A stretch of DNA of 64,000 nucleotides from assembly GCF_029639405.1 (NCBI RefSeq), contig NZ_CP121273.1:1-64000 (forward strand), given 5' to 3'. The stretch is from Microbacterium proteolyticum. Its GTDB lineage: Bacteria > Actinomycetota > Actinomycetes > Actinomycetales > Microbacteriaceae. A program made the translations under genes and the position numbers. How positions within the stretch are numbered: the stretch's first letter is position 1; each line of letters opens with the position of its first letter. Shown piece after piece: positions 12,595-56,660 of the stretch. The notes beneath the pieces are model-generated. The model was given only the letters and a program-made list of their open reading frames with translations, had not been told where the DNA came from and made no database searches.

Positions 12595-14741
12595 GCCAGC
12601 ACGAACATCACAACCACTCGGCCCGCACGAACCACCAGGGCCACAACGCTCCGGCGGCAACGGCAGTACACGACCACGTAGCGATGGGCCACCCGCACGG
12701 CACGGATGATCGGGCACCTGCGGCGGGGCACGCCGGGCACGGTCACGCCGACCACGGCGGTCACGCCGGTCACGGTGATCACGTCGCCCGGTTCCGGCGG
12801 CTGTTCTGGATCATGCTGGTTCTCGCGGTGCCGGTCGTGGCTTTCTCCAGCATGTTCTCGATGCTGATCGGCTACCCGCTGCCGGACGCGGCGTGGGTGG
12901 GATGGGTGTCCCCGATTCTCGGGACCGTCATGTATGTCTGGGGTGGCGCCCCGTTCCTTACCGGCGCCGTCAGCGAGCTGCGCGCCCGCAAGCCCGGCAT
13001 GATGCTTCTCATTGCCCTCGCGATCACCGTCGCGTTCCTCGCGTCCTGGGGGGCAAGCCTCGGGCTGTTGCACCACGAGTTGGACTTCTGGTGGGAGCTG
13101 GCGCTGCTGGTCGTAATCATGCTTCTCGGGCACTGGATCGAGATGCGATCCCTCGCCCAGACCACCTCCGCCCTCGACTCCCTCGCCGCGCTCCTGCCCG
13201 ACGAGGCCGAGAAGGTGGACGGGGAAACCACCGTCACCGTCGCCCCCGCTGAGCTGCAGGTCGGTGACGTGGTTGTGGTCCGCCCCGGTGGGCGGGTTCC
13301 CGCGGACGGGCGGATCGTGCAGGGCTCGGCCAGCATGGACGAGTCGATGATCACCGGAGAATCCCGCCCCGTTCGCCGCGGCGACGGCGATCAGGTCGTC
13401 GCCGGCACGGTCGCCACCGACTCCGGAGTTCGCGTAGAAATCACCGCGGTCGGGCAGGACACCGCCCTCGCGGGCATCCAAAAGCTCGTCACTGAGGCTC
13501 AAAACTCCTCCTCTCGCGCGCAGCGGCTCGCGGACCGTGCTGCGGGGTGGCTGTTCTGGTTCGCGCTCGGCGCGGCCGCGGTCACCGCCTTGGTGTGGTC
13601 CCTGGTGGGATTCCCCGACGAAGCGGTCATCCGCACCATCACCGTTCTGGTCATCGCCTGCCCGCACGCCTTGGGACTGGCGATCCCGCTCGTCGTGTCG
13701 ATCGCCACGGAGCGTGCCGCGCGCGGCGGTGTTCTGATCAAGGACCGTCTCGCGCTGGAAAGCATGCGCACCGTCGACACGGTGCTGTTCGACAAGACCG
13801 GCACACTCACCAAGGGAACGCCGGCCGTCACCGCGATCGACCCTGCCGAAGGGGTCGATGCAGACGAACTGCTGGCCTTGGCCGCCGCCGCCGAGGCGGA
13901 CTCTGAACACCCCCTTGCTCGGGCGATCGTGAACGCCGCGAAAGAGAAGCAGCTCACCGTCCCCTCCTCCAACGACTTTGAATCGTCACCGGCCGTCGGT
14001 GTCCGCGCGCAGGTCACCGGGCGCACCGTCCAGGTCGGCGGCCCCTACATGCTCGAGCAGGAGAAGGCCGCTGAGCGGTCGATCGCGAACGAGTGGCGCA
14101 ACGAGGGTGCGATCATCCTCCACGTCCTCATCGACGGGCAGGTGGCAGGAGCGCTGCGCCTGGCGGACGAGATCCGCCCTGAATCGCGCGCCGCGGTCGA
14201 CGCGCTGCACCAGCGGGGCGTGCAGGTGGTCATGATCACCGGAGACGCCGAAGCGGTTGCCGCATCCGTCGCCGCCGACCTCGGCATCGACCGCTACTTC
14301 GCCGGGGTCCGCCCCGAAGACAAAGCATCCAAGGTCAAGCAGCTTCAGAACGAATCCCGCAAGGTCGCCATGGTTGGTGACGGGGTGAACGACGCACCCG
14401 CCCTCGCGCAAGCCGATGTCGGTATCGCCATCGGCGCGGGCACCGATGTCGCCATCGCGTCCGCCGGGGTCATCCTCGCCAGCGACGACCCCCGCTCCGT
14501 GCTGTCCGTGATCGACCTGTCGCGGGCCAGCTATCGGAAGATGAAGCAGAACCTGTGGTGGGCCGCCGGATACAACCTCGTCTCCGTCCCCCTCGCCGCC
14601 GGAGTGCTCGCCCCTATCGGGTTCGTCCTCCCCATGTCCGTCGGAGCGATCCTGATGTCGCTGTCCACGATCGTCGTCGCACTCAACGCGCAACTTCTTC
14701 GCCGGCTCGACCTCAGCCCGCAAGCCGTCGCCGCGAAGTAG
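12591..14741 (+). CDS. copB: CopB-type P1B ATPase with His-rich N-terminus
   Basis: 716 residues. Instead of an HMA domain the first ~65 residues are rich in His ([25 protein letters not shown]). The core carries CPH in place of CPC, TGES, DKTGT, SEHP and [10 protein letters not shown], which places it with P1B-3 CopB pumps linked to Cu(II)/Cu(I) or silver efflux. A GGAGG site precedes the ATG, which overlaps the copA stop. A tandem CopA plus CopB gives two efflux routes of different metal preference. Confidence 0.93.
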
Positions 14742-17504: not shown

Positions 17505-18032
17505 TCAGCCGCGGTGCTGGGAACCGTCACCGGTGCTCCCGCTGATGGGAGCGTGGTCTCGACGGAGCAGATACAAGGCTGCCCACCCGAGCAGGCCGAG
17601 GGTTGTGAAGATGTCAGCCACGTTGAAGATGGCGAACCAGTCGACAGCGATGAAGTCGACGACCTCTCCGCTGAGCGGTCCGGTTTCAGCGCGTGTGGTG
17701 CGGTCCCACAGGTTGCCGATCGCGCCGCCGGCGGCGGCAGCCAGCAGCGCAGTAGCGCCCATGCTCTGCCTCCGCAGCACTCGGATGACGATCCACGTGA
17801 GCAGCGCGGCGACAAGGACCATAACGCCGACGACAAGCGGCGCTCCTACATCGCCGCCGAGACCGAATGCGACCCCAGGGTTGAACACGAGGCGCAGGGA
17901 TACGCCCAGCCCAAGGTCGATATCACGGCCTCCGTCGAGGTAGGACAGGGCCCACGCTTTGGTGAGTTGGTCGACCGTGAAGGCGGCAACTACGGCAGCA
18001 GTGGCAGCGAGGAGGCGTGTGAATCTGCTCAC
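17505..18032 (-). CDS. lspA: Lipoprotein signal peptidase II
   Basis: 175 residues, four helices, with the two catalytic aspartates D110 (NLWDR) and D140 (FNVADI) of signal peptidase II. The GTG at 18032 overlaps the cadD stop (GTGA) and gives a normal length; longer readings into cadD are excluded. LspA copies are often found in Cd/Pb resistance operons. It probably processes the metal-binding lipoproteins encoded alongside. Confidence 0.9.
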   Translation of the reverse strand: MSRFTRLLAATAAVVAAFTVDQLTKAWALSYLDGGRDIDLGLGVSLRLVFNPGVAFGLGGDVGAPLVVGVMVLVAALLTWIVIRVLRRQSMGATALLAAAAGGAIGNLWDRTTRAETGPLSGEVVDFIAVDWFAIFNVADIFTTLGLLGWAALYLLRRDHAPISGSTGDGSQHRG

Positions 18033-18640
18033 GACAGGACTTCGATGAGGCGAACGATCACGCCGGACTCGATCAGGATGTACAGGCCCAGCCCGATGAA
18101 CACGGCCGGCACGAGCCAGTGCTCGATCTTCTCGAGGGCTTCTGTGACGGCTTTGCTGGTACCTACGAAGCGGGCGACAAGGCACCACACGGCGACCAGG
18201 ACCAAGAACACGATGATGGTGACGATGGTGTCCGGAACAGGGTTGGTGCGGAACACAGGGGTGTACAGCGAGATGTTGTCGGCGCCGTTTGCGATGGTGA
18301 TGCCGGCAACTCCGAGCAGGCCCCCGGCGCTGATGGAGCTTTCGTCGTCGCCGTCATCGTCGCCGCGACGTCGGAGCGTACGAATCAGCCCGTAAACACC
18401 GATCGCAAGTGGGACCAGGCCCAGCAGCCCGACCCATTCGTCCGGGACGATGGTCAGGCCCGCGGCGGCGAGGCTGCTGATTGCGACCAGGGCGATGAAG
18501 CCGAGGTACTGCCCGGCCACGACCTTCCATCCCGGGAGGGCTCCGCGTGCGGACGCGAGAAACAGAACGGTGAGGACGACGATGTCGTCGATGTTCGTCG
18601 CCGCGAACAGGCCGATGGCGGCCACGATGGTTCCGATCAT
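18029..18640 (-). CDS. cadD: CadD-family cadmium resistance transporter
   Basis: 203 residues with about five to six helices. Family signatures include NIDDIVVLTVLF near the N-terminus and ITIANGADNISLYTPVF in the middle. Members export Cd(II). The ATG overlaps the ArsR stop and the end overlaps lspA, giving a tight three-gene operon. An Asp-rich loop (DDDGDDE) lies between the two halves. Confidence 0.9.
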   Translation of the reverse strand: MIGTIVAAIGLFAATNIDDIVVLTVLFLASARGALPGWKVVAGQYLGFIALVAISSLAAAGLTIVPDEWVGLLGLVPLAIGVYGLIRTLRRRGDDDGDDESSISAGGLLGVAGITIANGADNISLYTPVFRTNPVPDTIVTIIVFLVLVAVWCLVARFVGTSKAVTEALEKIEHWLVPAVFIGLGLYILIESGVIVRLIEVLS

Positions 18641-18969
18641 CGGGCGTCGCTCCCGTACGTCTTGCACAGATCGACCTTGAAACCCGTCGCGGCGAGGAGT
18701 CGCTCGGCCGCTTCGAGAACATCGATCACCTCAGGAGTGGAGACAGAGTAAAAGTTCTGCCGGCCCTCACTGCGGGCAACGACAAGCCCGCATTCGCGGA
18801 GGCATCCAACGTGCTCCGACACGGTCGATTGCGCCAAGCCGAGCTCATCGGTCAGGTCCCTCACCCGAGCTTCACCGGCTGACAGCCGACGCAGTATCGA
18901 CAGGCGACTGTGATCGGCAAGAGAGTGGAACAGGGAGACAGCAGCTGCAAGATCTTGTGTCATCGTCAC
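18637..18969 (-). CDS. ArsR/SmtB-family sensor of the cadD operon
   Basis: 110 residues: winged helix with LGLAQSTVSEHVGCLRECGL and a C-terminal dimer helix ending VDLCKTYG. Cys residues in the recognition region and near the C-terminus match metal-thiolate sensors. Closely similar in layout to the sensor at 60466. ATG 18969 coincides with the predicted transcription start. It should repress ArsR-cadD-lspA until Cd(II) or similar ions bind. Confidence 0.88.
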   Translation of the reverse strand: MTMTQDLAAAVSLFHSLADHSRLSILRRLSAGEARVRDLTDELGLAQSTVSEHVGCLRECGLVVARSEGRQNFYSVSTPEVIDVLEAAERLLAATGFKVDLCKTYGSDAR

Positions 18970-47006: not shown

Positions 47007-48230
47007 ATGCACACTTTAGCGCGCCCGCGCGCCCATACGCATTCTCTAAACGCAAATTCGTCCCGCGTGTCGCGGGAATCTCCCCCTGCGCGCCCCCAGG
47101 ACGCCGCACAGCGCAGCAGGTCACCCAGAGGCGGCAGCTGGGCACTCCCCGCGCCCGAGGGCGTCTATGGCCCTCTGAGGGCCTGGCCCAGTGCATCCGT
47201 CTGGTTCGACGCAGTGATGGACATCCTCCGCACCCCGGAGGGTGAAGAAGCCCGTCGACGCGCGAAAGTCGCCCCCGACACGCTCCTGCGCGTCGCACAC
47301 GCCGACCGCACGGCCGCAGACCAATCCACGGGCCGCGGCGTCACCACCGCACACGACACCGTGGCGGGCGTGCTCGGCATGAGCGGAAAGACCGTCCAGC
47401 GAGCCCGGCAGCTGCTCGAGGTGCTCGGCCTGGCGGTGACCGTCGCTGAGGGCCGCTACCTGACCACAACCGAGCGCGCGCAAGCCCACGCTAAGCACGG
47501 TGGCCAACAGCTCCGGGCAGCGTCCACTCGTGCCCTGACACTCCCCCGCGGCTACACGCCCCCCACCGGCAACGCCGTCGCCGGCATCGATTCCACTGCT
47601 GTGGAAAATGTCCAGCTACCCACCCGTAGGGGGGTTAAGAACTTCTCTCCCGTTGGTAAAAAATCACCAAGGCGCGCGCATCCGCGCACGCGAGAAGACG
47701 CCGCTACGCGGCGCCCAGCTTCGACAAAAACCCGGCAAAAACCGGCTTCGCAGCAACCTCGCCCGATCGACGTTCAACGTCTTGCCGCGGGCCTGTGTGC
47801 GCGGATGTCGTGGCTGGACCGTGCGACCTCGCACCTCGGCAAGCTCTGCGACGTGCTGATCGCCCACGGCCTCACAGGGCGCGGATGGACTGCTGAATCG
47901 TTACTCGACGCAATCCAGCGCGGCCGCCTTGAGCGGCGTATCCCTCTCGTCGACGTCGCATCCCAGCGTGATCCGTTCGGGTACTTCGTATGGCTGCTTC
48001 GCGCCACCGTCGACGCCGGCTCTCCCGCTCCGTTCCTGCAGCTGCAGGTTGAGAGTCGGCGGCGTGCCGAGCGTCAGGCGCTCGAAGCTGCACACGAGGC
48101 CGCACGCCGAGCCGAGATCCGCGCCAACGCGGACGAGATCGCCGCGGTGATCGCGCGCATGCGCGAGCACTTCCCCTCCCGCCCGCGCCCAAGCCGTAGG
48201 CACTTCACCCCGCCTCACTCCGCGAGGTGA
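47007..48230 (+). CDS. Plasmid replication initiator-like HTH protein
   Basis: 407 residues. The N-terminal half holds a winged helix (VAGVLGMSGKTVQRARQLLE, LGLAVTVAEGRYLTTTERAQ); the C-terminal half is helical with WTAESLLDAIQRGRLERRIP and an Arg-rich coiled end. This plan matches Rep-like HTH proteins of actinobacterial plasmids. AGGAG at 46998 supports ATG 47007. A short AT-rich inverted repeat (TTGGT/ACCAA, 47654-47671) lies inside the gene and could belong to an origin. Confidence 0.65.
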   Translation: MHTLARPRAHTHSLNANSSRVSRESPPARPQDAAQRSRSPRGGSWALPAPEGVYGPLRAWPSASVWFDAVMDILRTPEGEEARRRAKVAPDTLLRVAHADRTAADQSTGRGVTTAHDTVAGVLGMSGKTVQRARQLLEVLGLAVTVAEGRYLTTTERAQAHAKHGGQQLRAASTRALTLPRGYTPPTGNAVAGIDSTAVENVQLPTRRGVKNFSPVGKKSPRRAHPRTREDAATRRPASTKTRQKPASQQPRPIDVQRLAAGLCARMSWLDRATSHLGKLCDVLIAHGLTGRGWTAESLLDAIQRGRLERRIPLVDVASQRDPFGYFVWLLRATVDAGSPAPFLQLQVESRRRAERQALEAAHEAARRAEIRANADEIAAVIARMREHFPSRPRPSRRHFTPPHSAR

Positions 48231-48256
48231 TCGAGCCGGCTACGCCGACCAGCTGG

Positions 48257-48493
48257 GGCCTGACGGCCCGTTTGTTTGCCGTGAAGCCTTCGGCGGCTCC
48301 CTCCGCTTCGCTGCGGTCGTAGCTACCTCCGGGCTCCGTTCAAGTGGCTACGCCACCGGCTCCCCCGAGACTTTCGGCACGCGGTCGCTACGCTCCCTTA
48401 TTTCGCGCCGAAACTCTCTCCTCCCCCGCCCTTCGGGTTGCACTGCACCCTTCGGTTGCTAAGGCGGAAAACCGCCTTCACGGCAAAAAAACG
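48257..48493 (+). ncRNA. Candidate structured RNA leader, copy A
   Basis: Starts with hairpin GGCCtgacGGCC. TTTGCCGTGAAG (48275-48286) pairs perfectly with CTTCACGGCAAA (48476-48487) across ~190 nt. Inside are a GCCttcGGC hairpin next to the 5' strand and AAGGCGG-aaaa-CCGCCTT next to the 3' strand, with further CUUCG-type loops between. It ends 22 bp before a start codon. The same frame of elements recurs at 49634. No protein is encoded here. Confidence 0.55.
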
Positions 48494-48515
48494 TGGAGGA
48501 GAAAGGAAAGAGACC

Positions 48516-49163
48516 ATGACGCTGATGGACATGATCAACGACCTGATGCACGAAGACCACGTTGCGGGTCTGCCGCAATGGACGGGGATGCCGCTGGGAC
48601 AGCTGGTCACCGATTACCACCACCCCGACGAGCTCGACGCGGCCTGGCGCCGCTGGGTCGAAATCAACGGCCACTTCAACAGCGTCTTCCTGTCCAAGAT
48701 GTGGCACCGCAGCTACACCGTCCGTCACATGGATATCGGCGAGCACACGTTCGACCTGTACGACGTCGACCTCCGGTGCGCTGCAGGAGCCCACGACTCG
48801 CGGAAGATTGGCGACCCTCTCGGCCCGCTCTGCCAGTGCGTCGGCAGCATCACCGCCCAGGCCATCTGCTCCCGCTGCTCCTGGCACCACATCGGCACCG
48901 AAGCCGAATGCGTCGAGGCCTGGCACGACCACGCATTCCCCGGCTGGCGCGACCTTCCCACCCTTCCCGGCAAGCTCCGCGGCGGAATGGGCCCCACCAG
49001 CATGACGCCGAAGCTCGAGGCCTGGCTCGAGGACAACTACACGCCCGCGTTCCGCGTTCCGGGCGCCCCCATCCTCACCGAACGCCCCAGCTACGGCAGC
49101 CGCCACATACCCAACTACAGCCCCTTCGGCGGATTCGACCTCTCCGCCCCCAACAAGCCCTAA
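48516..49163 (+). CDS. Plasmid-borne protein with Cys/His-rich centre, unknown
   Basis: 215 residues. N-terminal helices (MTLMDMINDLMHEDHVAGLP), a central segment with possible zinc ligands (CAAGAHD, CQCVGSITAQAICSRCSWHH) and CVEAWHDHAFPGW, and a Pro-rich end (RHIPNYSPFGGFDLS). GGAGGAGAAAGGA precedes the ATG. Similar proteins are found on actinobacterial plasmids as hypotheticals. It is the gene served by structured leader A. Confidence 0.6.
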   Translation: MTLMDMINDLMHEDHVAGLPQWTGMPLGQLVTDYHHPDELDAAWRRWVEINGHFNSVFLSKMWHRSYTVRHMDIGEHTFDLYDVDLRCAAGAHDSRKIGDPLGPLCQCVGSITAQAICSRCSWHHIGTEAECVEAWHDHAFPGWRDLPTLPGKLRGGMGPTSMTPKLEAWLEDNYTPAFRVPGAPILTERPSYGSRHIPNYSPFGGFDLSAPNKP

Positions 49164-49164
49164 T

Positions 49165-49181
49165 AGTACTAATCCCGTTAC
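49165..49181 (+). repeat. 17-bp plasmid motif, site 1
   Basis: AGTACTAATCCCGTTAC, 14 bp before the start at 49196. Identical copies are at 56951 and 57292, variants at 49509, 49541, 56991 and 57368. Position suggests an operator or a -10-overlapping control site (TACTAAT). Confidence 0.65.
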
Positions 49182-49195
49182 AGATTGGATCGACC

Positions 49196-49501
49196 ATGAC
49201 GAACCTCACCCCCCGCGACGTCGAAACCCTGCTCGACGATCTCGCCCAGCTGCTCCCGTTCCCGACGACCCTCTACGTGGACATGGGCGCCGAAGAGTGG
49301 ACCGCCCAGCTCTACTACGGCCCCGTCGACCCCGACAGCGAACTGCCCATCCACCGCGTCGGCATCGACGCCCACACCGTTCGCCCCGTCTGGTGGATCG
49401 ACCTGGACGAAGGAAGCCGCACCATCCTGCTCGAGGAAGTCACCCCCGACGACGTATGCGCGGTCGCCGCGCGCGTCGCTGAGACACAACAACATGACTA
49501 A
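49196..49501 (+). CDS. Small acidic plasmid protein, unknown function
   Basis: 101 residues: LTPRDVETLLDDLAQLLPFP, TTLYVDMGAEEWTAQLYYGP, VWWIDLDEGSRTILLEEVTP and a final helix. Alternating strands and helices, acidic, no known motif. Preceded by one 17-bp motif and followed by two more. Confidence 0.6.
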   Translation: MTNLTPRDVETLLDDLAQLLPFPTTLYVDMGAEEWTAQLYYGPVDPDSELPIHRVGIDAHTVRPVWWIDLDEGSRTILLEEVTPDDVCAVAARVAETQQHD

Positions 49502-49508
49502 CCCCATT

Positions 49509-49557
49509 AGTACTGTTTCCGTTACACGACTGGCGGGAACAGTACTAATCCCGGCAG
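49509..49557 (+). repeat. 17-bp plasmid motif, sites 2 and 3
   Basis: AGTACTGTTTCCGTTAC at 49509-49525 and AGTACTAATCCCG at 49541-49553, where the GTTAC end is lost. They lie ahead of structured leader B and the glutaredoxin-like gene. Confidence 0.6.
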
Positions 49558-49633
49558 AAGAGCATCATGGGACCCAGCGGCAGACGGAGCAGCCGCCGGC
49601 ATCGGACGATCGGACGGAGCCGATCGGCAGTCA

Positions 49634-49811
49634 AGGCCTGTCGGCCCGTTCTTTTGCCGTGAAGCCTTCGGCAGCATACGGTCGACCACCCTGCGCGCCA
49701 GAGCTTTCGCGGCATATCCTCGCTCGCTTCGCTCCCTCCGGTATTCCACGGTCACTGGCACTACGGCCGCTCTTCCTAGCGGCGATAAATCGCCTTCACG
49801 GCAAGAAAACG
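49634..49811 (+). ncRNA. Candidate structured RNA leader, copy B
   Basis: GGCCtgtcGGCC hairpin, then TTTGCCGTGAAG (49652-49663) pairing with CTTCACGGCAAG (49794-49805; one G-T pair), enclosing GCCttcGGC and GGCG-ataaat-CGCC hairpins. Order and pairing match copy A at 48257 while the middle differs in length and sequence, which points to a conserved fold. It ends 22 bp before the start of the glutaredoxin-like gene. Confidence 0.55.
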
Positions 49812-49833
49812 ATTGGGATGGGAGGATCACGAA

Positions 49834-50121
49834 ATGGACAAGCTCACGGTCTACACGACGGGCCCCAGCTGCGGAAAGTGCTCGATGACCAAGATGATGC
49901 TGAAAGGCAAAGGCATCCCATTCGTCGAGGTCGACATCACTCAGAACCCGGCCGCACACGAGTACGTGACGGAAGAGCTCGGCTACAGCATGGCCCCGGT
50001 TGTCGTCGTGGACGACGACGATCACTGGTGCGACATGCGCCCCGACCAGATCGACCGGATCGCCAAACGGGCGATATTGCCATCCGATGCAACGCGCGAA
50101 GCGCGATCGCCCGCGCGGTAG
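49834..50121 (+). CDS. Glutaredoxin/NrdH-like protein
   Basis: 95 residues: LTVYTTGPSCGKCSMTK with redox pair C13/C16, cis-Pro segment SMAPVVVVDDDDHW, and a short C-terminal helix. GGGAGG precedes the ATG. NrdH-type redoxins supply electrons to ribonucleotide reductase; plasmid and phage copies are common. Preceded by structured leader B. Confidence 0.85.
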   Translation: MDKLTVYTTGPSCGKCSMTKMMLKGKGIPFVEVDITQNPAAHEYVTEELGYSMAPVVVVDDDDHWCDMRPDQIDRIAKRAILPSDATREARSPAR

Positions 50122-50214
50122 AGCCTGAGCTCAAGAAGGATGTCGAGGGGGCCGGGGGTCTCTGCGCCACTCTTGATCACCCAGAGTACTTCATTTGCAT
50201 CAATGTTGTATTGG

Positions 50215-51357
50215 ATGCATCATGAGGATGTGCTTGAAGTTGATCCATCGTCTGCGCAGCGGCTCGTCTCCGCGCGGAATGTCATTCATCTTGACCCTGA
50301 GGGAGCCGTGCTCGACGGGATGTTGAATGGGTGGCGAGCCCAGCAGATTGCTCGCTTCTTGAAGGCTCCGACGATTGCGGCGAGAGAGCGGCTCGTGCGC
50401 CGGTTCGTGGACTTCACGGGTATGTACCCGTGGCAATGGACGCCGGCGGAGGCGGAGGCGTGGATCAGTGAGCTGCGCTCGGGCGTGAAGCCGTTGCGGC
50501 TATCGACGCTGCGTGGATACGAGATCGACATCAAGATGTTCTGCGAGTACATCACTGATCCTCGATATCCCTGGCTGTCCGAGTGTGAAGCGCGTTTTGG
50601 CGCTGCACCCAGACAGGTGTTCCATGAGGACAACTCGATTGTGCATGTCAGCGAGTACGAGGGCGATGCCGCGCGGCGACCGTTGACATTCGACGAAGTC
50701 CAGGCGCTGTTCGATGCGGCCGACGGGCTCGCCGCCCGGATCCTGTCGCGACGGCGAAAGGGTGCGGTTCAGGCCGTGCGGGACGCCGCGCTTCTCAAGT
50801 GCGTCTATGCGTTCGGGTTGCGAAGACGTGAGGCGGTCATGCTTGATCTCGTGGATCTCCGCCGCAACGCGAAGCTGCCGCACCTAGACCGATTCGGTGC
50901 ACTGTCGGTGCGCCATGGCAAAGCGAGCCGCGGGGGCCCGTCGAAGCGGCGCACGGTGCTCACCGTTCCGGAGATGGGCTGGATCGCGGAGACGCTGGCG
51001 CACTACCTCGATGAGGTTCGGCCGGCGTTGTCGTCATCGTCGAGTTCGTCGCCTGCTCTGTGGGTGACCGAACGGGGCACGAGGCTGAGCAGGCGTGCGG
51101 CGAACGAAGCGTTCTGTACAGCTCGTGATGCCGCGGGGATCGACTCTTCGTTGGATCTGCATTCGTTGCGGCACTCGTACGTGACGCACCTGGTGGAGTT
51201 CGACTACCCGGAGCGGTTCATTCAGGAGCAGGTGGGGCACTCGTTTTCCTCGACGACCGCGATCTACGTCGGCGTCTCTAACGAGTACCGGAACCGGCTG
51301 CTCACCCAAGCTATTCACACCCGCTACGGCGCCGACTTCGAGGAGGCAGCACGGTGA
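50215..51357 (+). CDS. Tyrosine recombinase/integrase
   Basis: About 380 residues: N-terminal SAM-like core-binding domain (GWRAQQIARFLKAPTIAARE), catalytic domain with arginine in YAFGLRRREAVML, HSLRHSYVTHL (HxxR) and the nucleophile in GHSFSSTTAIYVGVSN. All key residues are present. The start is uncertain (GTG 50140, ATG 50203 or ATG 50215). The stop overlaps the next gene (GTGA), opening a coupled three-gene module. Confidence 0.88.
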   Translation: MHHEDVLEVDPSSAQRLVSARNVIHLDPEGAVLDGMLNGWRAQQIARFLKAPTIAARERLVRRFVDFTGMYPWQWTPAEAEAWISELRSGVKPLRLSTLRGYEIDIKMFCEYITDPRYPWLSECEARFGAAPRQVFHEDNSIVHVSEYEGDAARRPLTFDEVQALFDAADGLAARILSRRRKGAVQAVRDAALLKCVYAFGLRRREAVMLDLVDLRRNAKLPHLDRFGALSVRHGKASRGGPSKRRTVLTVPEMGWIAETLAHYLDEVRPALSSSSSSSPALWVTERGTRLSRRAANEAFCTARDAAGIDSSLDLHSLRHSYVTHLVEFDYPERFIQEQVGHSFSSTTAIYVGVSNEYRNRLLTQAIHTRYGADFEEAAR

Positions 51358-51683
51358 AAGAGATGGACTACGTCTGGCATCTGCGAGCGAAGATGGCGGA
51401 GCGTGGAATGTTCGCCACGACGGACCTGCAGCCGCTGCTCGCTGAGCGTGGTGTCGCGCTCTCCCGGGAGCAGACCTACCGGCTGGTGACGGGTCAGCCG
51501 CAGCGCCTGAGCATGGTTACGCTGATCGCGCTGTGCGACATCCTTGAGTGCACACCCAACGACCTCATCGAACCCCGCATCGTCGAGGCGTCCGCCAGGA
51601 AGGCTTCCGGGGAAGTCATCCCGCGGAAGAGCCGAGTATCCGCCCGCCGAACGACGATCAATCGGCCCGGGCATTCGAAATGA
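51354..51683 (+). CDS. XRE-family helix-turn-helix protein of integrase module
   Basis: 109 residues: a Cro/C1-type HTH (GVALSREQTYRLVTGQPQRL, VTLIALCDILECTPNDLIEP) and a basic C-terminus. Coupled at both ends by overlapping start and stop codons. It could control the module or act as an excision/accessory factor. Confidence 0.85.
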   Translation: MKEMDYVWHLRAKMAERGMFATTDLQPLLAERGVALSREQTYRLVTGQPQRLSMVTLIALCDILECTPNDLIEPRIVEASARKASGEVIPRKSRVSARRTTINRPGHSK

Positions 51684-53521
51684 CCGTGGTGCCGGAGCAT
51701 CCTTGCTCCGAGTGCGGAAGCCGCGCCCCGCGGGTGAAACGACTCCCCGACGGTGGAGGGCTCTGCCGACCGTGCTACAACGTCAGCCGACGTATGGAGT
51801 GCTCGCGCTGTGGTCGCATCCGTGCGCCCAGCGCTCGAGCCGAGGACGGCGCACCACTCTGCGGGCACTGCGCGCGCCCTAAGCGGGCGTGTGCGGGATG
51901 CGGCCGTGTCGATCACGTCACCGCCATCGTGGACGGTCAGGATCTCTGCCAGCGCTGCTACTCCGCACCGGTCAGAGCGTGCGGACAATGCGGACGGGAG
52001 CGACGCGTCGCAACCCGCCACCAGAATGGCGTAGCAGATCTGTGCCACAGCTGCTACCGCACCCCCATCGCCGAGTGCGCCATCTGCGGTGAGAAGCGCG
52101 CGGTTCATACGACCTGGCCCCTCGGGTCTATATGCGGCGTGTGCTATCGACGCGAGCTCCGCCACCCCGACGGCTGCGGGTCTTGTGGGCAGGTGAAAGC
52201 GCTCATCGGTCGCGATGACCGAGGGGAGCGCGTTTGCGGGCCGTGTGCAGGGTCGACGCGCGACTACGTCTGTGCCACGTGTGGCGCCCCGGGTGAGCAG
52301 CACTTCGAGAACACCTGCATCCGCTGCTCCGTCGTTCGAGCCGCCGGCGACCTCCTCGCGTCCGCGACGGGGGTGATCCCCGGGCGTTTGGCCGGGCTCC
52401 CGGACGCGCTCGTTTATCGAGGTCGCGTGGACTCGACCATGAGATGGCTGCTCAAGCCCACCCCGAGAGCTCTGCTCCGAGCGATCGGGTCGGAAGAGTC
52501 GATCACGCATGCGCGCGTTGACGCGTGTCCGCCTGGGCAGGCGCGACATCATCTCCGTGCGCTCCTGGTCGACGTCGGCGTTCTCCCGGTACGAGATGAG
52601 CAGACTGAGCGGCTCGAAACATGGGTCGACGAGTACCTGATCCAGCTTCCTTCACACCATGCCGCCGAGATCACTCCCTATGCACAATGGAAGGTGCTGC
52701 GGACTGTGCGGCGGCGGGCAGGACGCCGCCGTACCACGGTCGGTGTCGCAGATTCCGCGCGTGAACGGATCCGCGCGGCCGCGCGACTCCTGCAGCACGT
52801 CGAGCAAGAAGGGGCGGGCTTCTCCGCGCTGACACAGGAGGTCCTAGACCGGTGGGTCGGCGGCAACGCAGCCCGCACCGGCGACATCGCACCGTTCATC
52901 TCGTGGCTCAGGTCCACCGGCCAGTATCCGGGACTCCGCGTCGAGCGCGGACAGCAGGCCAGGCCGAGCGAGGTCAGCGGGGAGGACGAGCATCACGCTC
53001 TGGTCCGCACGTTTATCGCCGGGTCGGACGACACGGTGAGCCTCGCGACCAGGGTTGCCGCGCTGCTCGTGCTCCTTTACGGAGCTCGAACCGACCGCAT
53101 CCACCGGCTCACCACTGTCGACACCAGTACAGCCGGAGGACGAACGTATCTCGCGCTATCGACAGAACCCATCGAGATCCCGAACTCGGTCGCTCAACTC
53201 TTCGCGCAGCTCGTGAAAGAAGCTGAGCAGAATCCGGGGGCGACTCGGCGAGCCGGTGAGGGATCGTATCTATTCCCATCTCCCCGACGACACCACGAGC
53301 CGATCCATCCCACGACCCTCGGACGGTGGATAGCGCGGGCCGGGGTCAGCCCGCGGATCGCCCGGAACTACGCCATGCTCGCCCTCGCTAGCGACCTCCC
53401 CGCCGCTATCGTGGCCGTTCAGATGGGAATCACGCCGCAGACAGCGAGCCGATGGTCGCAGTTCTCGCAACGCGACAATTCCGAGTTCGTCGCCGCGAGA
53501 GCAGATTTCCTCCCCCGCTGA
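51680..53521 (+). CDS. Seven-zinc-ribbon protein with degenerate integrase domain
   Basis: 613 residues. Residues ~9-230 hold 14 CxxC pairs forming seven tandem zinc ribbons (CSECG, CRPCY, CSRCG, CGHCA, CAGCG, CQRCY and so on). The rest resembles a tyrosine-recombinase fold (LLVLLYGARTDRIHRL; FPSPRRHHEPIHPTTLGRWI), but HxxR is replaced by SPRIARNYA and the tyrosine region by TASRWSQFS. It is probably a non-catalytic partner of the integrase at 50215. ATG 51680 overlaps the XRE stop. Confidence 0.75.
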   Translation: MTVVPEHPCSECGSRAPRVKRLPDGGGLCRPCYNVSRRMECSRCGRIRAPSARAEDGAPLCGHCARPKRACAGCGRVDHVTAIVDGQDLCQRCYSAPVRACGQCGRERRVATRHQNGVADLCHSCYRTPIAECAICGEKRAVHTTWPLGSICGVCYRRELRHPDGCGSCGQVKALIGRDDRGERVCGPCAGSTRDYVCATCGAPGEQHFENTCIRCSVVRAAGDLLASATGVIPGRLAGLPDALVYRGRVDSTMRWLLKPTPRALLRAIGSEESITHARVDACPPGQARHHLRALLVDVGVLPVRDEQTERLETWVDEYLIQLPSHHAAEITPYAQWKVLRTVRRRAGRRRTTVGVADSARERIRAAARLLQHVEQEGAGFSALTQEVLDRWVGGNAARTGDIAPFISWLRSTGQYPGLRVERGQQARPSEVSGEDEHHALVRTFIAGSDDTVSLATRVAALLVLLYGARTDRIHRLTTVDTSTAGGRTYLALSTEPIEIPNSVAQLFAQLVKEAEQNPGATRRAGEGSYLFPSPRRHHEPIHPTTLGRWIARAGVSPRIARNYAMLALASDLPAAIVAVQMGITPQTASRWSQFSQRDNSEFVAARADFLPR

Positions 53522-53622: not shown

Positions 53623-54888
53623 TCAAGTGTCCAGGGGGTGTCTCGTCTCGACGTCCCGCATGCGTCCGGCTAGAAGCGCGACGATGGCGAGCAGCGTCGG
53701 CGCGACGCCGGCCACGATGAAGATGGCTGGTATCGGCACGATCAGCGATAGGGGCCCGGCGATGGCGATCGAGACGGGCATGAACGCGATGGAGACGAAG
53801 AAGTCGAGACTGGCGACACGGCCGATCATTTCGGGTGGCACGAGGCGTTGAAGCAGTGTGCCCCAGATCACCACGCCGGCTCCTGTGGCAGCTCCGACCG
53901 CGAACAGTGTGGCGAGCATCACTATTAGGTTGTTGGCGAGGCCGATGAGCACGAGCGGGAGGGTTCCGCCGCCCCAGAGGCCGATCATCAGTGTCAGGTA
54001 TCGCCGGGGCAGTTTGAGTGACGACACGATGAGCGATCCGATGGCGCCTCCGATTCCGTAGGCGGCGAGTAGTAGTCCGAACGTTGCTTCGGCGTCGTCG
54101 AATCGGTCGCGGGTGAGGAAGGGGAGAAGTACCTCGATTGGGCCCTGGATGATGAGCGCGAGGGATGATCCGAAGATCAGGGTCCATAGCAGCCAGCGGG
54201 TGCGGGCGACGTAGCGGACCCCGGCTTTGAGGTCGCCCCACACGCTCGTGCGTTGCTGCGACTGTTCCGGTTCGGTGGTTTCCTCCCGGCGGCTGAGGAA
54301 CAGTGTGATGACGAACGCGACTGCGTAGGACGCGGCGACGATGACCGCTCCGATGGCGGGGAAGAACGCCCCGACGATGATCCCTCCGAGGGCGGGTCCG
54401 AGGCCCTGCCCCATCGAGGGCCGGAGAGCCCCTTCGAGCCCGTTTGCGGCGAGCAGTTGTTCGGGCGGTAGTACTTGGGGGAGGTAGGCGCTGTAGGCCG
54501 GGTAGAAGAACGCACTACCCGCGCCCATGGCGAACGAGGCGAGCCCGACATGCCACAACTCGATCGCGCCCGTGAGGGACAGCACCGCGACGGCGGCCAT
54601 GACCGCCGCGGTGAGTCCCTGCACGGTGATGATGATCCGCCGCTTCGAGAAGCGATCGGCTACCACCCCGCCGAGGACCGAGAAAGCGAAGAGGCCGAGG
54701 CTGAGCCCGGTAGCGACGGCTGACAGGGCAAGGGGGCTGTCGTCGAGTGCGAGCACCTGAAACACCATGACGATGGTCCACATGCCGGTGCCGAAGACTT
54801 CGATACCGACGGCCGCGAACAGCAGCCGGTAGTCGCGGGTAGCGAGAGGGCGCAGCGCCCGCAGCCGGTCGGGAGTCTCGCGGGTCAT
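53623..54888 (-). CDS. MFS efflux transporter (DHA3 type)
   Basis: 421 residues with about twelve helices and the MFS loop signature GGVVADRFSKRRIII. Similar to macrolide/tetracycline-type drug antiporters of the DHA3 group. The start overlaps the stop of the ABC-F gene, so the two form an operon; such pairs point to antibiotic resistance. Substrate not determinable here. Confidence 0.85.
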   Translation of the reverse strand: MTRETPDRLRALRPLATRDYRLLFAAVGIEVFGTGMWTIVMVFQVLALDDSPLALSAVATGLSLGLFAFSVLGGVVADRFSKRRIIITVQGLTAAVMAAVAVLSLTGAIELWHVGLASFAMGAGSAFFYPAYSAYLPQVLPPEQLLAANGLEGALRPSMGQGLGPALGGIIVGAFFPAIGAVIVAASYAVAFVITLFLSRREETTEPEQSQQRTSVWGDLKAGVRYVARTRWLLWTLIFGSSLALIIQGPIEVLLPFLTRDRFDDAEATFGLLLAAYGIGGAIGSLIVSSLKLPRRYLTLMIGLWGGGTLPLVLIGLANNLIVMLATLFAVGAATGAGVVIWGTLLQRLVPPEMIGRVASLDFFVSIAFMPVSIAIAGPLSLIVPIPAIFIVAGVAPTLLAIVALLAGRMRDVETRHPLDT

Positions 54889-56525
54889 ACGAGCGCCTCG
54901 CTTTCGGTCGTAGCTTCCAGTTGCAGTGCCGGCCAGCCTTCGACGTCGCGGAGAAGCTGCCGGTCGTGGGTGGATACGACAACAGCCGCTTGGGTGGCGT
55001 TGAGCGCGTCGGTCAGTTCGTCGACGAGCGCGATCGATAGGTGGTTGGTCGGTTCGTCGAGCAAGAGCACGTGCGGCTTGGTGGCGAGCACCAGGGCCAG
55101 CTCGAGGCGCCGTTGCTGGCCCATCGACAGCTCACCTATCCGCTTGCTCGATTCGCGGGCGCGCAGGAGCCCGAGCTGCGAGAGACCGACTGCCTCACGC
55201 GATGGAACGAGCGCGTCGACGTGGGCTGCGTAGAACTCGCTCGCGCGACGATCCAGCGGCAGCTCCGACTCTTGGCGCAGAAAAGCGAGCCGCACGTTCT
55301 GCGGGCGACGAACGGTGCCGGTGTCCGGGCGGAGGTCTCCCGCTGCGACGCTCAGCAGTGTGGACTTGCCGGCCCCGTTGGGTCCGGTCACTACGAGACG
55401 CCCGCGGTGTGACAAAGAGAACGCCGCCGGGCGCGTAAGCCTGCCGGTCACGGTCACGTCCTCCACGCTCAACAGCACCGCTCCGGTTCGGGTCGCAAGC
55501 TCCGGGAAGCGAAACACTTGCGGCGGCTCGGGAACAGTCACCGCGTGCGCTTCGAGTTGCTCCTGCCGGCGATGCACGCTCTGCACGAGCCCGCCCGCGC
55601 GCGTGGCCCGTCCGTGCTTGTTGGTTCCCTTCTCTGGTCGCCACCCCGAGACGAGTCGGTTCTGCGCCGAGCTGAGACTGTCCTGCAGCCGCGCGAGCTC
55701 GGTCTGCTGTCGCTCGAATTCGTGCTCCCACCGTTCGCGCTCGGCGCGCCGGCCCTCGCGGTAGCCGGCATAACCGTTGCCGTACACGCGCACCCGGTCA
55801 TCCGGGGTCGGGTCGAGGTCCACGATCGTCTCCGCGACGTCGGAGAGCAGCGCGCGATCATGGGTGACGACGACCACGCCGCCGTTTCGCGACCGCAGTT
55901 GCGTGGTCAGAAACTCGAGGCCGCTTCGATCGAGGTGATTTGTGGGTTCGTCGAGGAGCAGGAAATCGTCGTCGGCGCCGAGCAGGCACGCCAGACGGAC
56001 TCGATAGCGCTGCCCGACGGAGAGGTCGTCCAGGCGCCGGGATGGCTCCGTTTCGGCGTCGAGTGCTTCCAACGCGATCTGCACCCGCCGTTCGGCATCC
56101 CACGCATCGAGGACTTCGGCGTGTTCCAATGCGGCGGCGTATCGTTCTTCGGCGCCGGGGACGCCTGCGGCGAGTGACACCGCGGCCGAATCGAGGGCCG
56201 CAACGGCGGCGAGCGGCTGCGCGATCGCTTCCGCGACCGCCTGGCCCACTGTGCGGTTGCCGCCGGTCGGCATCTCTTGTTCGGCTATGCCGACCGTCCC
56301 GAGTCGCTGCACTACTCCGCTGTCCGGGGTGAGAGCGCCGCTGAGGACGTGCAGGAGCGTCGACTTCCCCCGGCCGTTCTCGCCCACGATCGCTACTCGC
56401 GAGGTGGCCGTGACCGTGAGGTCGACGTGGCTGAGGACGGGGGTGGCTCCGCGCGTTACGGAGACGTCGGAGGCGATGAGCTGCGCGCGATGGCGCGCTG
56501 ATAGAGGGGTGTTGAGGGAGAGCAT
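54885..56525 (-). CDS. ABC-F family ribosome-protection-type ATPase
   Basis: 546 residues, two ABC domains in one chain and no membrane helices: Walker A GENGRGKST and GPNGAGKST, signatures LSVGQRYR and LSMGQQRR, Walker B LLLDEPTNHLD and LLLDEPTNHLS. The linker (EFERQQTELARLQDSLSSAQ...) is the antibiotic-resistance-domain position. GAAGGA supports ATG 56525. ABC-F proteins of this kind remove macrolide, lincosamide or pleuromutilin drugs from ribosomes. A leader peptide lies upstream. Confidence 0.9.
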   Translation of the reverse strand: MLSLNTPLSARHRAQLIASDVSVTRGATPVLSHVDLTVTATSRVAIVGENGRGKSTLLHVLSGALTPDSGVVQRLGTVGIAEQEMPTGGNRTVGQAVAEAIAQPLAAVAALDSAAVSLAAGVPGAEERYAAALEHAEVLDAWDAERRVQIALEALDAETEPSRRLDDLSVGQRYRVRLACLLGADDDFLLLDEPTNHLDRSGLEFLTTQLRSRNGGVVVVTHDRALLSDVAETIVDLDPTPDDRVRVYGNGYAGYREGRRAERERWEHEFERQQTELARLQDSLSSAQNRLVSGWRPEKGTNKHGRATRAGGLVQSVHRRQEQLEAHAVTVPEPPQVFRFPELATRTGAVLLSVEDVTVTGRLTRPAAFSLSHRGRLVVTGPNGAGKSTLLSVAAGDLRPDTGTVRRPQNVRLAFLRQESELPLDRRASEFYAAHVDALVPSREAVGLSQLGLLRARESSKRIGELSMGQQRRLELALVLATKPHVLLLDEPTNHLSIALVDELTDALNATQAAVVVSTHDRQLLRDVEGWPALQLEATTESEALV

Positions 56526-56660
56526 TCGTATCCTTCGGAAACGACGCACCGCACGGCTATGAAGCGTGCGAGGGTGCGCAAGGTGACGGCGACCCGTGCA
56601 GGGTCGAGAACGAGCGGCCGCCGCAGGCTCGGATGACTCAACGAGCGCGGTAGGCCTTAC

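What the first reader, a model, noticed from the sequence alone, without database searches (positions are those of the whole stretch)
48257..49811. Two copies of a candidate structured RNA in front of two different plasmid genes
Stretches at 48257-48493 and 49634-49811 encode no protein, share the same ends and the same order of pairings, and differ in the middle. Shared parts: GGCC hairpin with TGAC/TGTC loop, a long-range 12-bp stem TTTGCCGTGAAG/CTTCACGGCAAA (one G-T pair in copy B), GCCttcGGC next to the 5' strand and a GGCG/CGCC hairpin next to the 3' strand. In copy A the last hairpin overlaps the closing stem by three bases (48476-48478), so the two could compete like a switch. Both end 22 bp before a start codon with a strong ribosome site. 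Leader RNA is the preferred reading; a MITE-like DNA element with 12-bp terminal repeats is the alternative.
Basis: partly seen in the sequence, partly recalled or inferred. Interest (0 to 1): 0.82.

Follow-up and report, generated by a model that had tools for sequence, protein, structure and literature searches.

The report
Single-stranded DNA promoters on actinobacterial plasmids
Two folded DNA stretches on this plasmid look like promoters that work only while a plasmid enters a new cell as a single DNA strand, so that its first genes can be switched on at once; this kind is known from gut-bacterium plasmids, and we found no report of it in actinobacteria.

Summary
Both copies are real and belong to a family: 61 distinct copies on 36 contigs, nearly all Micrococcales, some on long contigs that may be chromosomes. 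Covariation supports the hairpin. Three results point to single-stranded DNA of the minus strand, not a plus-strand leader RNA. (1) Closing-stem wobbles are G·T on the minus strand: 10, against 0 A·C. (2) A sigma70-like promoter, TTGNNN-15/16-TANNNT, lies in the minus-strand 3' arm pointing to the stem base, away from the gene; 54 of 61 copies have TANNNT. No plus-strand promoter is enriched in 110 nt upstream. (3) On seven relaxase-bearing relatives, 12 of 12 stem-type copies point the same way as the relaxase gene; an MOBP7-like nic site lies opposite mobC in 6 of 6 MOBP plasmids, so the transferred strand should be the template of the gene behind the element. That is the geometry of Frpo of plasmid F, with unrelated sequence. 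Against: the window's plasmid has no PF03432 relaxase or recognisable oriT, each window copy has one weak box, and one related module is turned round. Nothing was tested at the bench.

The parts
48256..48269 (.). GGGCC-TGAC-GGCCC hairpin upstream of copy A
   Evidence: sequence; closes as a separate hairpin in the minus-strand fold
48276..48486 (-). copy A: candidate ssDNA promoter, folded strand = minus; variant with an extra hairpin in the 3' arm; promotes plus-strand transcription towards 48516
   Evidence: closing stem, covariation in the A-type alignment, identical copy in L097, 93.7% identical match on plasmid NZ_CP120713, which carries a MobF relaxase
48275..48286 (.). copy A closing stem, plus-strand 5' arm (TTTGCCGTGAAG)
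48476..48487 (.). copy A closing stem, plus-strand 3' arm (CTTCACGGCAAA)
48286..48294 (-). copy A mini-hairpin GCC-GAA-GGC (minus strand)
   Evidence: loop GAA, GCA or GCCA in 60 of 61 copies; the last A of the loop was fixed by the retrieval pattern
48316..48321 (-). copy A -10-like box TACGAC (deviates from TANNNT)
48338..48343 (-). copy A -35-like box TTGAAC, 16 nt from the -10-like box
48367..48418 (-). copy A apical stem (A-type module)
   Evidence: helix 4
48463..48476 (.). copy A GGCGG/CCGCC hairpin on the template arm, beside the closing stem
48516..49163 (+). gene behind copy A: DUF6349 (PF19876) protein, 215 aa; on two other plasmids read it stands near ardC or nrdH
   Evidence: Pfam E 5.7e-25; neighbours in Janibacter and Gordonia plasmids
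49196..49501 (+). small ORF between the two elements, 101 aa, no Pfam family
49654..49804 (-). copy B: candidate ssDNA promoter with the B-type apical module; promotes plus-strand transcription towards 49834
   Evidence: alignment A1 and covariation
49664..49672 (-). copy B mini-hairpin GCC-GAA-GGC (minus strand)
49673..49678 (-). copy B -10 box TATGCT
49695..49700 (-). copy B -35-like box TGGCGC, 16 nt from the -10 box (deviates from TTG)
49704..49752 (-). copy B apical module GTGGAATACC...GGATATGCCGCGAAAG, also found on proteobacterial plasmids and one Parageobacillus plasmid
49781..49794 (.). copy B GGCGA/TCGCC hairpin on the template arm
49834..50121 (+). gene behind copy B: NrdH-like glutaredoxin, 95 aa
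   Evidence: PF00462 E 7.9e-15; TIGR02194 E 2.3e-18, below its curated cut-off

Best explanation
The two elements are single-stranded DNA promoters of the Frpo kind, or inherited remnants of them, belonging to a sequence family for which I found no description. When such a plasmid enters a recipient as a single strand (the minus strand here), the element folds. Its 3' arm then carries a sigma70-type promoter read from the tip of the hairpin towards its base: -35 in a paired stem, -10 in a region about half open already in the predicted folds, then a junction with two small hairpins, then the closing stem as downstream duplex. RNA polymerase would start near the junction and run out along the single strand 5' of the hairpin, copying it into mRNA for the gene behind (DUF6349 protein; NrdH glutaredoxin; on relatives ArdC, a ParB-like protein and small genes). 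Once the second strand is made the hairpin is lost and expression ends. Shown: the structure, the strand asymmetry of its wobbles, the promoter-like boxes, co-orientation with relaxase genes, and a nic-like site on the opposite strand of MOBP relatives. Inferred: folding in the cell, recognition by RNA polymerase, the start point, timing, and use in this particular plasmid.
For: Strand: 10 G·T and 0 A·C among 671 cells of the 11-bp closing stem, about 8 separate changes by my count (8 to 0, sign test 0.008); composition alone predicts both kinds equally (0.108 and 0.107, worked out from the counts). Over the structures counted: B-type GT 89, AC 2; A-type GT 44, AC 1; 13 against 2 and 8 against 1 base pairs with any such cell (these pairs were partly chosen by a predictor that favours GT). 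Structure: B-type, 10 of 38 pairs with changes on both sides, covariation score 0.184 against 0.082 in shuffles, 0 of 500; A-type, 12 of 37 pairs, 0.132 against 0.056, 0 of 500. Promoter: TANNNT in 54 and CACAAT in 1 of 61 copies, ten hexamers in all, T1-A2-T6 nearly fixed and the middle free; TTG 15-16 nt away in 43 of those 55; chance of TANNNT at one place 0.004; mean score of the minus 3' arm 6.5 against 1.02 shuffled (39 representatives). The retrieval pattern did not contain these boxes. The -35 is mostly paired (mean unpaired 0.22) and the -10 more open (0.51; element mean 0.35) in 34 representatives. Plus strand, 110 nt upstream: 0.04 against 0.98 shuffled. Place: 12 of 12 stem-type elements on seven relaxase-bearing plasmids co-oriented with the relaxase gene (annotation; elements). 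Nic: inverted repeat then GCTTG|CT on the strand opposite mobC in 6 of 6 MOBP plasmids, like TGCTTG|CCA of pRJ6 (MOB P7) and RYGCTTG|C of Tn1549 (PMC7755788 Table A3, passage seen). Of three DUF6349 loci on other plasmids, one (47% identical protein) has such a hairpin with TTGTGT-15-TACAAT and a re-paired stem in the gap before the gene.
Against: No experiment. The window's plasmid has no PF03432 relaxase (the only relaxase family searched) and no convincing oriT-like site, so its copies may be relics. Copy A has TACGAC in place of TANNNT plus an extra hairpin (six of 61 copies are of this type), and copy B has TGGCGC in place of TTG. Plasmid pJ353-116 (L162) carries a B-type module beside its oriT in the orientation opposite to that predicted. 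Of the other two DUF6349 loci, Gordonia pKB1 has no minus-strand promoter hit and a good plus-strand one in the gap tested (which lies before nrdH), and Janibacter is ambiguous (large fold, minus-strand hits of odd spacing or weak -10). Positive control: in F's Frpo regions my score does not single out a promoter on the expected arm (fifth-ranked hit TTGTGG-17-GACAGT in Frpo2, none in Frpo1), so the score is not a general detector. The minus strand folds better than the plus strand in 61 of 61 copies, but composition-matched shuffles do so in 98%, so that says nothing, and the weaker plus-strand consensus folds share that weakness. The closing stem and the last A of the mini-loop were partly fixed by the search pattern. 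TTG also lies in a paired stem, so its conservation may be structural. My promoter weights were set by hand. Five of the 36 contigs are 490 kb or longer, so not all copies are on plasmids.
Confidence: 0.75

Rival explanations
1. Structured leader RNA (riboswitch-like or attenuator) transcribed from the plus strand and regulating the gene behind it.
For: The hairpin also pairs on the plus strand, with a weaker consensus; it sits just before open frames; the last hairpin overlaps the closing stem in copy A.
Against: Wobbles lie on the wrong strand, no promoter enrichment in the 110 nt upstream (further upstream not tested), no Rfam family, the plus strand is C-rich rather than G-rich (composition), and the boxes on the minus strand would remain unexplained.
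Confidence: 0.1
2. Single-strand initiation site only: a folded T-strand site at which a primer for second-strand synthesis is made, with no role in gene expression. Frpo itself is reported to do both.
For: The B-type module also occurs on plasmids of 2,361, 2,569 and 3,571 bp (listing; the 2,569-bp Salmonella one was fetched, annotated with RepL only and typed as mobilizable), where a leading region is unlikely; and beside oriT in pJ353-116.
Against: Up to five copies per plasmid in one orientation; an open frame starts behind 60 of 61; -10 and -35 conservation.
Confidence: 0.09
3. Double-stranded regulatory repeat such as the establishment-gene repeats of pLS20 (EGeRS1), controlling genes by a repressor, RNA or terminator mechanism in duplex DNA.
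For: Gram-positive plasmids do control establishment genes by long upstream repeats (PMC8708921, passages seen). In duplex DNA the minus-strand boxes would fire leftwards and might make a regulatory RNA.
Against: In pLS20 the transferred strand is the non-template strand, which excluded ssDNA promoters there; here it is the template by nic homology. Leftward firing does not explain the hairpin or the fixed place before genes.
Confidence: 0.05
4. Mobile DNA repeat: MITE-like element or integron attC-like recombination site, perhaps used by the tyrosine recombinase encoded at 50140-51357.
For: Inverted ends, several copies per plasmid, a tyrosine recombinase next door.
Against: No exact flank repeat over 3 bp and no attC end boxes in 61 copies (attC boxes recalled); the ends co-vary. 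In the annotated Glutamicibacter and Gulosibacter plasmids no tyrosine recombinase is listed beside the copies.
Confidence: 0.01

Closest known systems
Frpo1/Frpo2 of plasmid F and ssi2/ssi3 of ColIb-P9 (single-stranded promoters of the leading region)
   Same: Hairpin on the transferred strand before leading-region genes; -10 and -35 boxes reported in the fold (PMC9849209, passages seen); more than one copy per plasmid; anti-restriction, SSB and ParB-like genes nearby. F's copy before ssb was found again as an 89.6% repeat.
   Different: Similarity is at chance level (best E 0.047 for 14 bases, opposite strand), so the BLAST searches at E 1e-6 described in print (PMC11541004, PMC12826799; passages) would not be expected to find it. 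Length 151-220 nt against 328 bp for Frpo (PMC9024699, passage seen); the tip is not AT-rich as in F; a junction with a GNA mini-loop at the base; found in Actinomycetota.
EGeRS1 of pLS20-family plasmids
   Same: Repeated structured region before establishment genes of Gram-positive plasmids, ArdC homologues among them.
   Different: There the transferred strand is the non-template strand and no promoter was found in the fold (PMC8708921, passages seen).
Frpo-like candidates of Samuel et al. 2024 (PMC11541004)
   Same: Candidate ssDNA promoters before anti-defence and establishment genes in leading regions.
   Different: The passages seen name Salmonella, Serratia, an insect metagenome, Streptococcus, Enterococcus, Shigella and Klebsiella; 'actino' occurs 0 times in the main text. 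Supplements were not seen.
Conserved apical module on Burkholderia and Pseudomonas conjugative plasmids
   Same: GTGGAATACC...GGATATGCCGCGAAAG with TTG 4 nt further on in 12 of 13 module copies read, several of them near-identical; two Burkholderia copies continue TTG-16-TATGCG.
   Different: Closing part differs; most lack a clear -10; function unknown. None of the ten paper searches used its sequence, so a published name may have been missed.

Membership tests
Frpo-type single-stranded promoter | lies in the leading region of a conjugative plasmid, before establishment genes | tested here: met
   Met on seven relaxase-bearing relatives. Not met for the window's own plasmid: no PF03432 relaxase, no oriT-like site.
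Frpo-type single-stranded promoter | transferred strand is the template of the gene | tested here: met
   By homology of the nic site in 6 of 6 MOBP plasmids; not mapped experimentally; for the two MobF plasmids only co-orientation with the relaxase gene. Contrary: pJ353-116 module.
Frpo-type single-stranded promoter | single strand folds so that -35 and -10 boxes lie in the stem and point to its base | tested here: met
   55 of 61 copies have the -10 form YANNNT, 43 of these also TTG; the six insert-type copies, window copy A among them, deviate.
Frpo-type single-stranded promoter | sequence homology to the known Frpo/ssi | tested here: not met
   It is therefore filed as working like Frpo, not as an Frpo homologue.
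Frpo-type single-stranded promoter | RNA polymerase starts from the ssDNA form and not from duplex | not testable with these tools
   needs in vitro transcription
Frpo-type single-stranded promoter | early, transient expression in the recipient | not testable with these tools
   needs mating experiments
cis-regulatory leader RNA | conserved structure with G-U pairs on the sense strand | tested here: not met
   closing stem 0 sense-strand wobbles against 10 on the other strand; one pair further out, copy B has one sense-strand wobble
cis-regulatory leader RNA | promoter upstream of the leader | tested here: not met
   no enrichment in 110 nt upstream, 39 representatives; further upstream not tested
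Rfam families | match at gathering score | tested here: not met
   window 0 matches; 48000-50100 only an isrG hit at E 2.5 elsewhere; L013-L015 none at E 1
MITE | target-site duplication | tested here: not met
   no exact flank repeat over 3 bp in 61 copies, four with 3 bp
integron attC site | RYYYAAC/GTTRRRY core boxes at the ends (recalled) | tested here: not met
   0 of 61

The most novel reading that the evidence does not exclude
One ancient single-stranded DNA platform is shared across phyla. The apical module GTGGAATACC...GGATATGCCGCGAAAG, with a T·G pair on the folded strand that never varies in the 24 aligned copies and a TTG at a fixed distance, is a docking site for RNA polymerase (or a partner) on folded single strands. 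Conjugative and small plasmids of Actinomycetota, Pseudomonadota and Bacillota use it to start mRNA or primer RNA before the second strand exists, and swap the closing part to make promoter or priming versions.
Probability: 0.28. Interest if true: 0.88.

Novelty: new variant of a known kind. Interest (0 to 1): 0.75.

Why it matters
Single-stranded promoters have been shown in an enterobacterial plasmid; for Gram-positive plasmids the case read here (pLS20) argues against them. If these work, actinobacterial plasmids turn on anti-restriction and establishment genes before second-strand synthesis by the same logic with an unrelated sequence; they include an erm(50)/tet(W) plasmid of Cutibacterium with one copy at the start of its ArdC gene. 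The conserved boxes and stem give a search model for leading regions and for the direction of transfer in plasmids that similarity to Frpo does not reach, and the half-open -10 makes a simple test of how sigma reads folded DNA.

Tried and rejected
Rfam: nothing. Phage records: no match. Viral contigs with an exact 20-mer: none. Fold energy of one strand against the other: 61 of 61 in favour of minus, but composition-matched shuffles show the same in 98%, so it was discarded as evidence. A class-wide scan with a short closing-stem pattern: 14 of 394 genomes matched with up to 1 mismatch, the own genome and 13 others with one hit each that look like chance; not used. Relaxase PF03432 in the own genome: none. 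oriT-like site in the 68-kb plasmid: one weak site inside a predicted P-type ATPase gene. MITE and attC. F as a positive control for my promoter score: not informative. A start codon behind a loose Shine-Dalgarno-like pattern occurs 16-85 nt behind all 61 copies, but that had no control; the open-frame count with a control (60 of 61 against 35 of 58) is used instead. YTR before the GGC hairpin in 57 of 61, no control.

Rows dropped before counts: of 107 stem pairs, one search kept 78 (66 distinct); seven loci were dropped as false by eye (L040, L068, L083, L089, L109, L113, L144), leaving 71 (59 distinct); two reversed ones (L017, L095) were added back, giving 73, 61 distinct. The window's own two copies are counted under the identical L033 and L097. 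Representatives: 39 by shared 8-mers. The finder also returned chance hits in coding sequence and empty wrap-around hits; only hits with the stem-type ends were counted. L150 (TPU 3598) has no stem-type element; a similar hairpin before its nrdH was seen by eye and not counted. L017 has two further A-type hairpins with other closing stems, not counted. BLAST saw two places on the Agreia plasmid, the finders one. The module count leaves out one L014 place with two mismatches that looks like coding sequence.
Full report
What was checked. The contig is 136,212 bp, exactly twice 68,106, so the window is most of one circular plasmid written twice. The gene behind copy A encodes a DUF6349 protein and the one behind copy B an NrdH-like glutaredoxin.

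A family. BLASTN of copy A finds 100 plasmid records, led by Clavibacter, Curtobacterium, Microbacterium and Arthrobacter; copy B finds 379, only 3 of them over 80% of the query. A Glutamicibacter plasmid carries five copies in one orientation among a DprA-like gene, ArdC, NrdH and small genes; Gulosibacter pARLON1 carries four. With four plasmid records already read, 61 distinct copies in 41 loci passed inspection. The 41 loci lie on 36 contigs. All bear names of Micrococcales except L127, a metagenome bin labelled Planctomycetota. Five contigs (of L018, L048, L090, L105/L126, L133) are 490 kb to 2.2 Mb long and may be chromosomal, so integrated elements probably carry the family too. An open frame of at least 60 codons starts within 110 nt behind 60 of 61 copies, against 35 of 58 on the other side (Fisher 7e-8).

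Structure. Two main types share the basal part and differ at the tip. On alignment A1 (24 B-type copies, the window's included) 98.4% of cells pair and 10 of 38 pairs show changes on both sides; on A2 (26 A-type copies) it is 97.3% and 12 of 37. No shuffle of 500 reached either covariation score, and sliding the partners destroys it. Stems are re-paired: TTGCCGTTGAT/ATCAACGGCAA, TGCCCGGGAAG/CTTCCCGGGCA, GCCATTGAAG/CTTCAATGGC.

Which strand. A G·T pair is tolerated in a fold, an A·C pair is not, and a G·T on one strand is an A·C on the other. In the 11-bp closing stem 658 of 671 cells are Watson-Crick, 10 are G·T on the minus strand, none is A·C and 3 are other mismatches. By base composition both kinds are equally likely (0.108 and 0.107, from the counts). 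Three of the ten look like one inherited change, so I count about eight. Over the whole structures: B-type GT 89 and AC 2, A-type GT 44 and AC 1, with the caveat that the pairs came partly from a predictor that favours GT. One pair further out the window's copy B is an exception (T·G on plus, A·C on minus); over the first six outward pairs of all copies the counts are GT 39, AC 4, other mismatches 43, where the arms are unevenly composed. The plus strand gives a weaker consensus fold, but fold energies alone are not evidence, since composition-matched shuffles show the same difference.

The promoter on the other strand. Read 5' to 3' on the minus strand, most copies end TTGNNN, 15 or 16 nt, TANNNT, GCC-GNA-GGC and the closing stem. 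TANNNT occurs in 54 and CACAAT in one of 61; ten hexamers occur, with the first two and the last base nearly fixed and the middle free, as expected of a -10 box; TTG stands 15-16 nt upstream in 43 of those 55. Six copies, window copy A among them, have an insert hairpin and no such box. Window copy A reads TTGAAC-16-TACGAC and copy B TGGCGC-16-TATGCT, so each has one weak box. A hand-set sigma70 score averages 6.5 for the minus 3' arm against 1.02 in shuffles, and 0.04 against 0.98 in the 110 nt upstream on the plus strand (39 representatives). The same score does not single out F's own promoters, so it is not a general detector. In duplex DNA these boxes would send polymerase away from the gene; in a folded minus strand they send it off the base of the hairpin along the template of the gene. 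In the predicted folds the -35 is mostly paired (0.22 unpaired) and the -10 more open (0.51, its second base 0.75) than the element on average (0.35).

Direction of transfer. In MOBP relatives an inverted repeat followed by TATGCTTG|CTACC, TTTAGCTTG|CTCC or TATAGCTTG|CTCC lies upstream of mobC on the opposite strand, in 6 of 6 plasmids; on the mobC strand the core occurs in one of them. OriT lists in PMC7755788 (Table A3, passage seen) give TGCTTG|CCA for pRJ6 (MOB P7) and RYGCTTG|C for Tn1549. MOBP nick regions have the repeat 5' of nic (PMC3772185, passages seen). The strand that leaves is then the template of every gene that points towards mobC. On seven relaxase-bearing plasmids (L012, L016, L017, L151, L152, L153, L154; two with MobF, where nic was not sought) all 12 stem-type elements point that way. 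This is the test that ruled out single-stranded promoters for pLS20 (PMC8708921, passages seen), and here it comes out the other way. One counterexample: in Arthrobacter pJ353-116 a B-type module near oriT is turned round.

A small prediction. Three plasmids with DUF6349 genes found by protein similarity were looked at. In Microbacterium amylolyticum the gap before the gene holds the element with a re-paired stem and TTGTGT-15-TACAAT. In Janibacter a large fold with doubtful boxes stands two genes upstream. In Gordonia pKB1 the gap between the DUF6349 operon and nrdH has no minus-strand hit and a good plus-strand promoter-like site. So one of three fits clearly.

Known relatives. Frpo of plasmid F is needed for early transient expression of leading genes (PMC9849209, passages seen) and is widespread by similarity (PMC11541004, passages; PMC12826799, passages). 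The original Frpo and ssi3 papers were not read. F's two copies are found as an 89.6% repeat. Their similarity to the present family is at chance level. Searches for ssDNA promoters or Frpo with actinobacterial terms listed no paper that describes this; only one of the five papers holding both Frpo and Actino, a general review, was looked into, and its passages do not connect them. These searches cover open-licence PMC texts only.

The shared tip. The B-type tip is about 80-92% identical over roughly 45-78 bases in listed plasmids of Burkholderia, Pseudomonas, Arsenophonus, Vibrio, Salmonella and a Parageobacillus (a spread of 60 of 330 records). In 13 module copies read outside the closing-stem family (12 on Pseudomonadota and Bacillota plasmids, 1 on Arthrobacter; some near-identical to each other) TTG stands 4 nt after it in 12. 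Two Burkholderia copies continue TTG-16-TATGCG before a leading-type gene, and most others have no clear -10. On plasmids of 2.4 to 3.6 kb it can hardly serve a leading region, so priming of second-strand synthesis is likely there.

Limits. Nothing here shows transcription. The window's own plasmid lacks a PF03432 relaxase and an oriT-like site; other relaxase families were not searched in it. A 93.7% identical relative of copy A lies on Microbacterium plasmid pMspBDGP8A, which has a MobF relaxase.

Noticed in passing
whole window; G000:C1: The contig is an exact head-to-tail dimer (136,212 = 2 x 68,106) of one circular plasmid, most likely an assembly artefact; both junction ends and the second copy's first 2 kb were compared.
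   Followed up: partly
53623-56549, minus strand: MFS transporter closest to Tet(V), with weaker Mef matches (below cut-offs), next to an ABC-F protein closest to the TlrC/CarA ribosomal-protection group (below cut-offs): a possible resistance pair.
   Followed up: partly
12561-14741 and 18029-18667: Copper/heavy-metal P-type ATPase and a CadD-family cadmium transporter (the latter below its cut-off): metal-resistance cargo.
   Followed up: partly
50140-51357 and 51548-53521: Tyrosine recombinase (phage integrase family, XerC/D-like) directly behind the NrdH gene, followed by a predicted 657-aa protein with no Pfam or NCBIfam family.
   Followed up: no
49160-49190 and 49505-49555: Repeated AGTACTAATCCCG and CGTTACA words between genes; AATAGTACTAATCC also stands behind elements of L043 and L057. 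Not explained.
   Followed up: no
L162 2700-3160: B-type module within about 200 nt of the nic-like site of Arthrobacter pJ353-116, in the orientation opposite to that predicted for a T-strand promoter.
   Followed up: partly
L150 23237-23671: Before nrdH of Microbacterium MST3P: a similar hairpin with an unrelated closing stem (CGTTCCTGA/TCAGGAACG) and no GNA mini-hairpin.
   Followed up: partly
L105, L126 (contig of 2.2 Mb), L018, L048, L090, L133: Copies on contigs of 490 kb and more, perhaps in integrated conjugative elements; their surroundings were not annotated.
   Followed up: no
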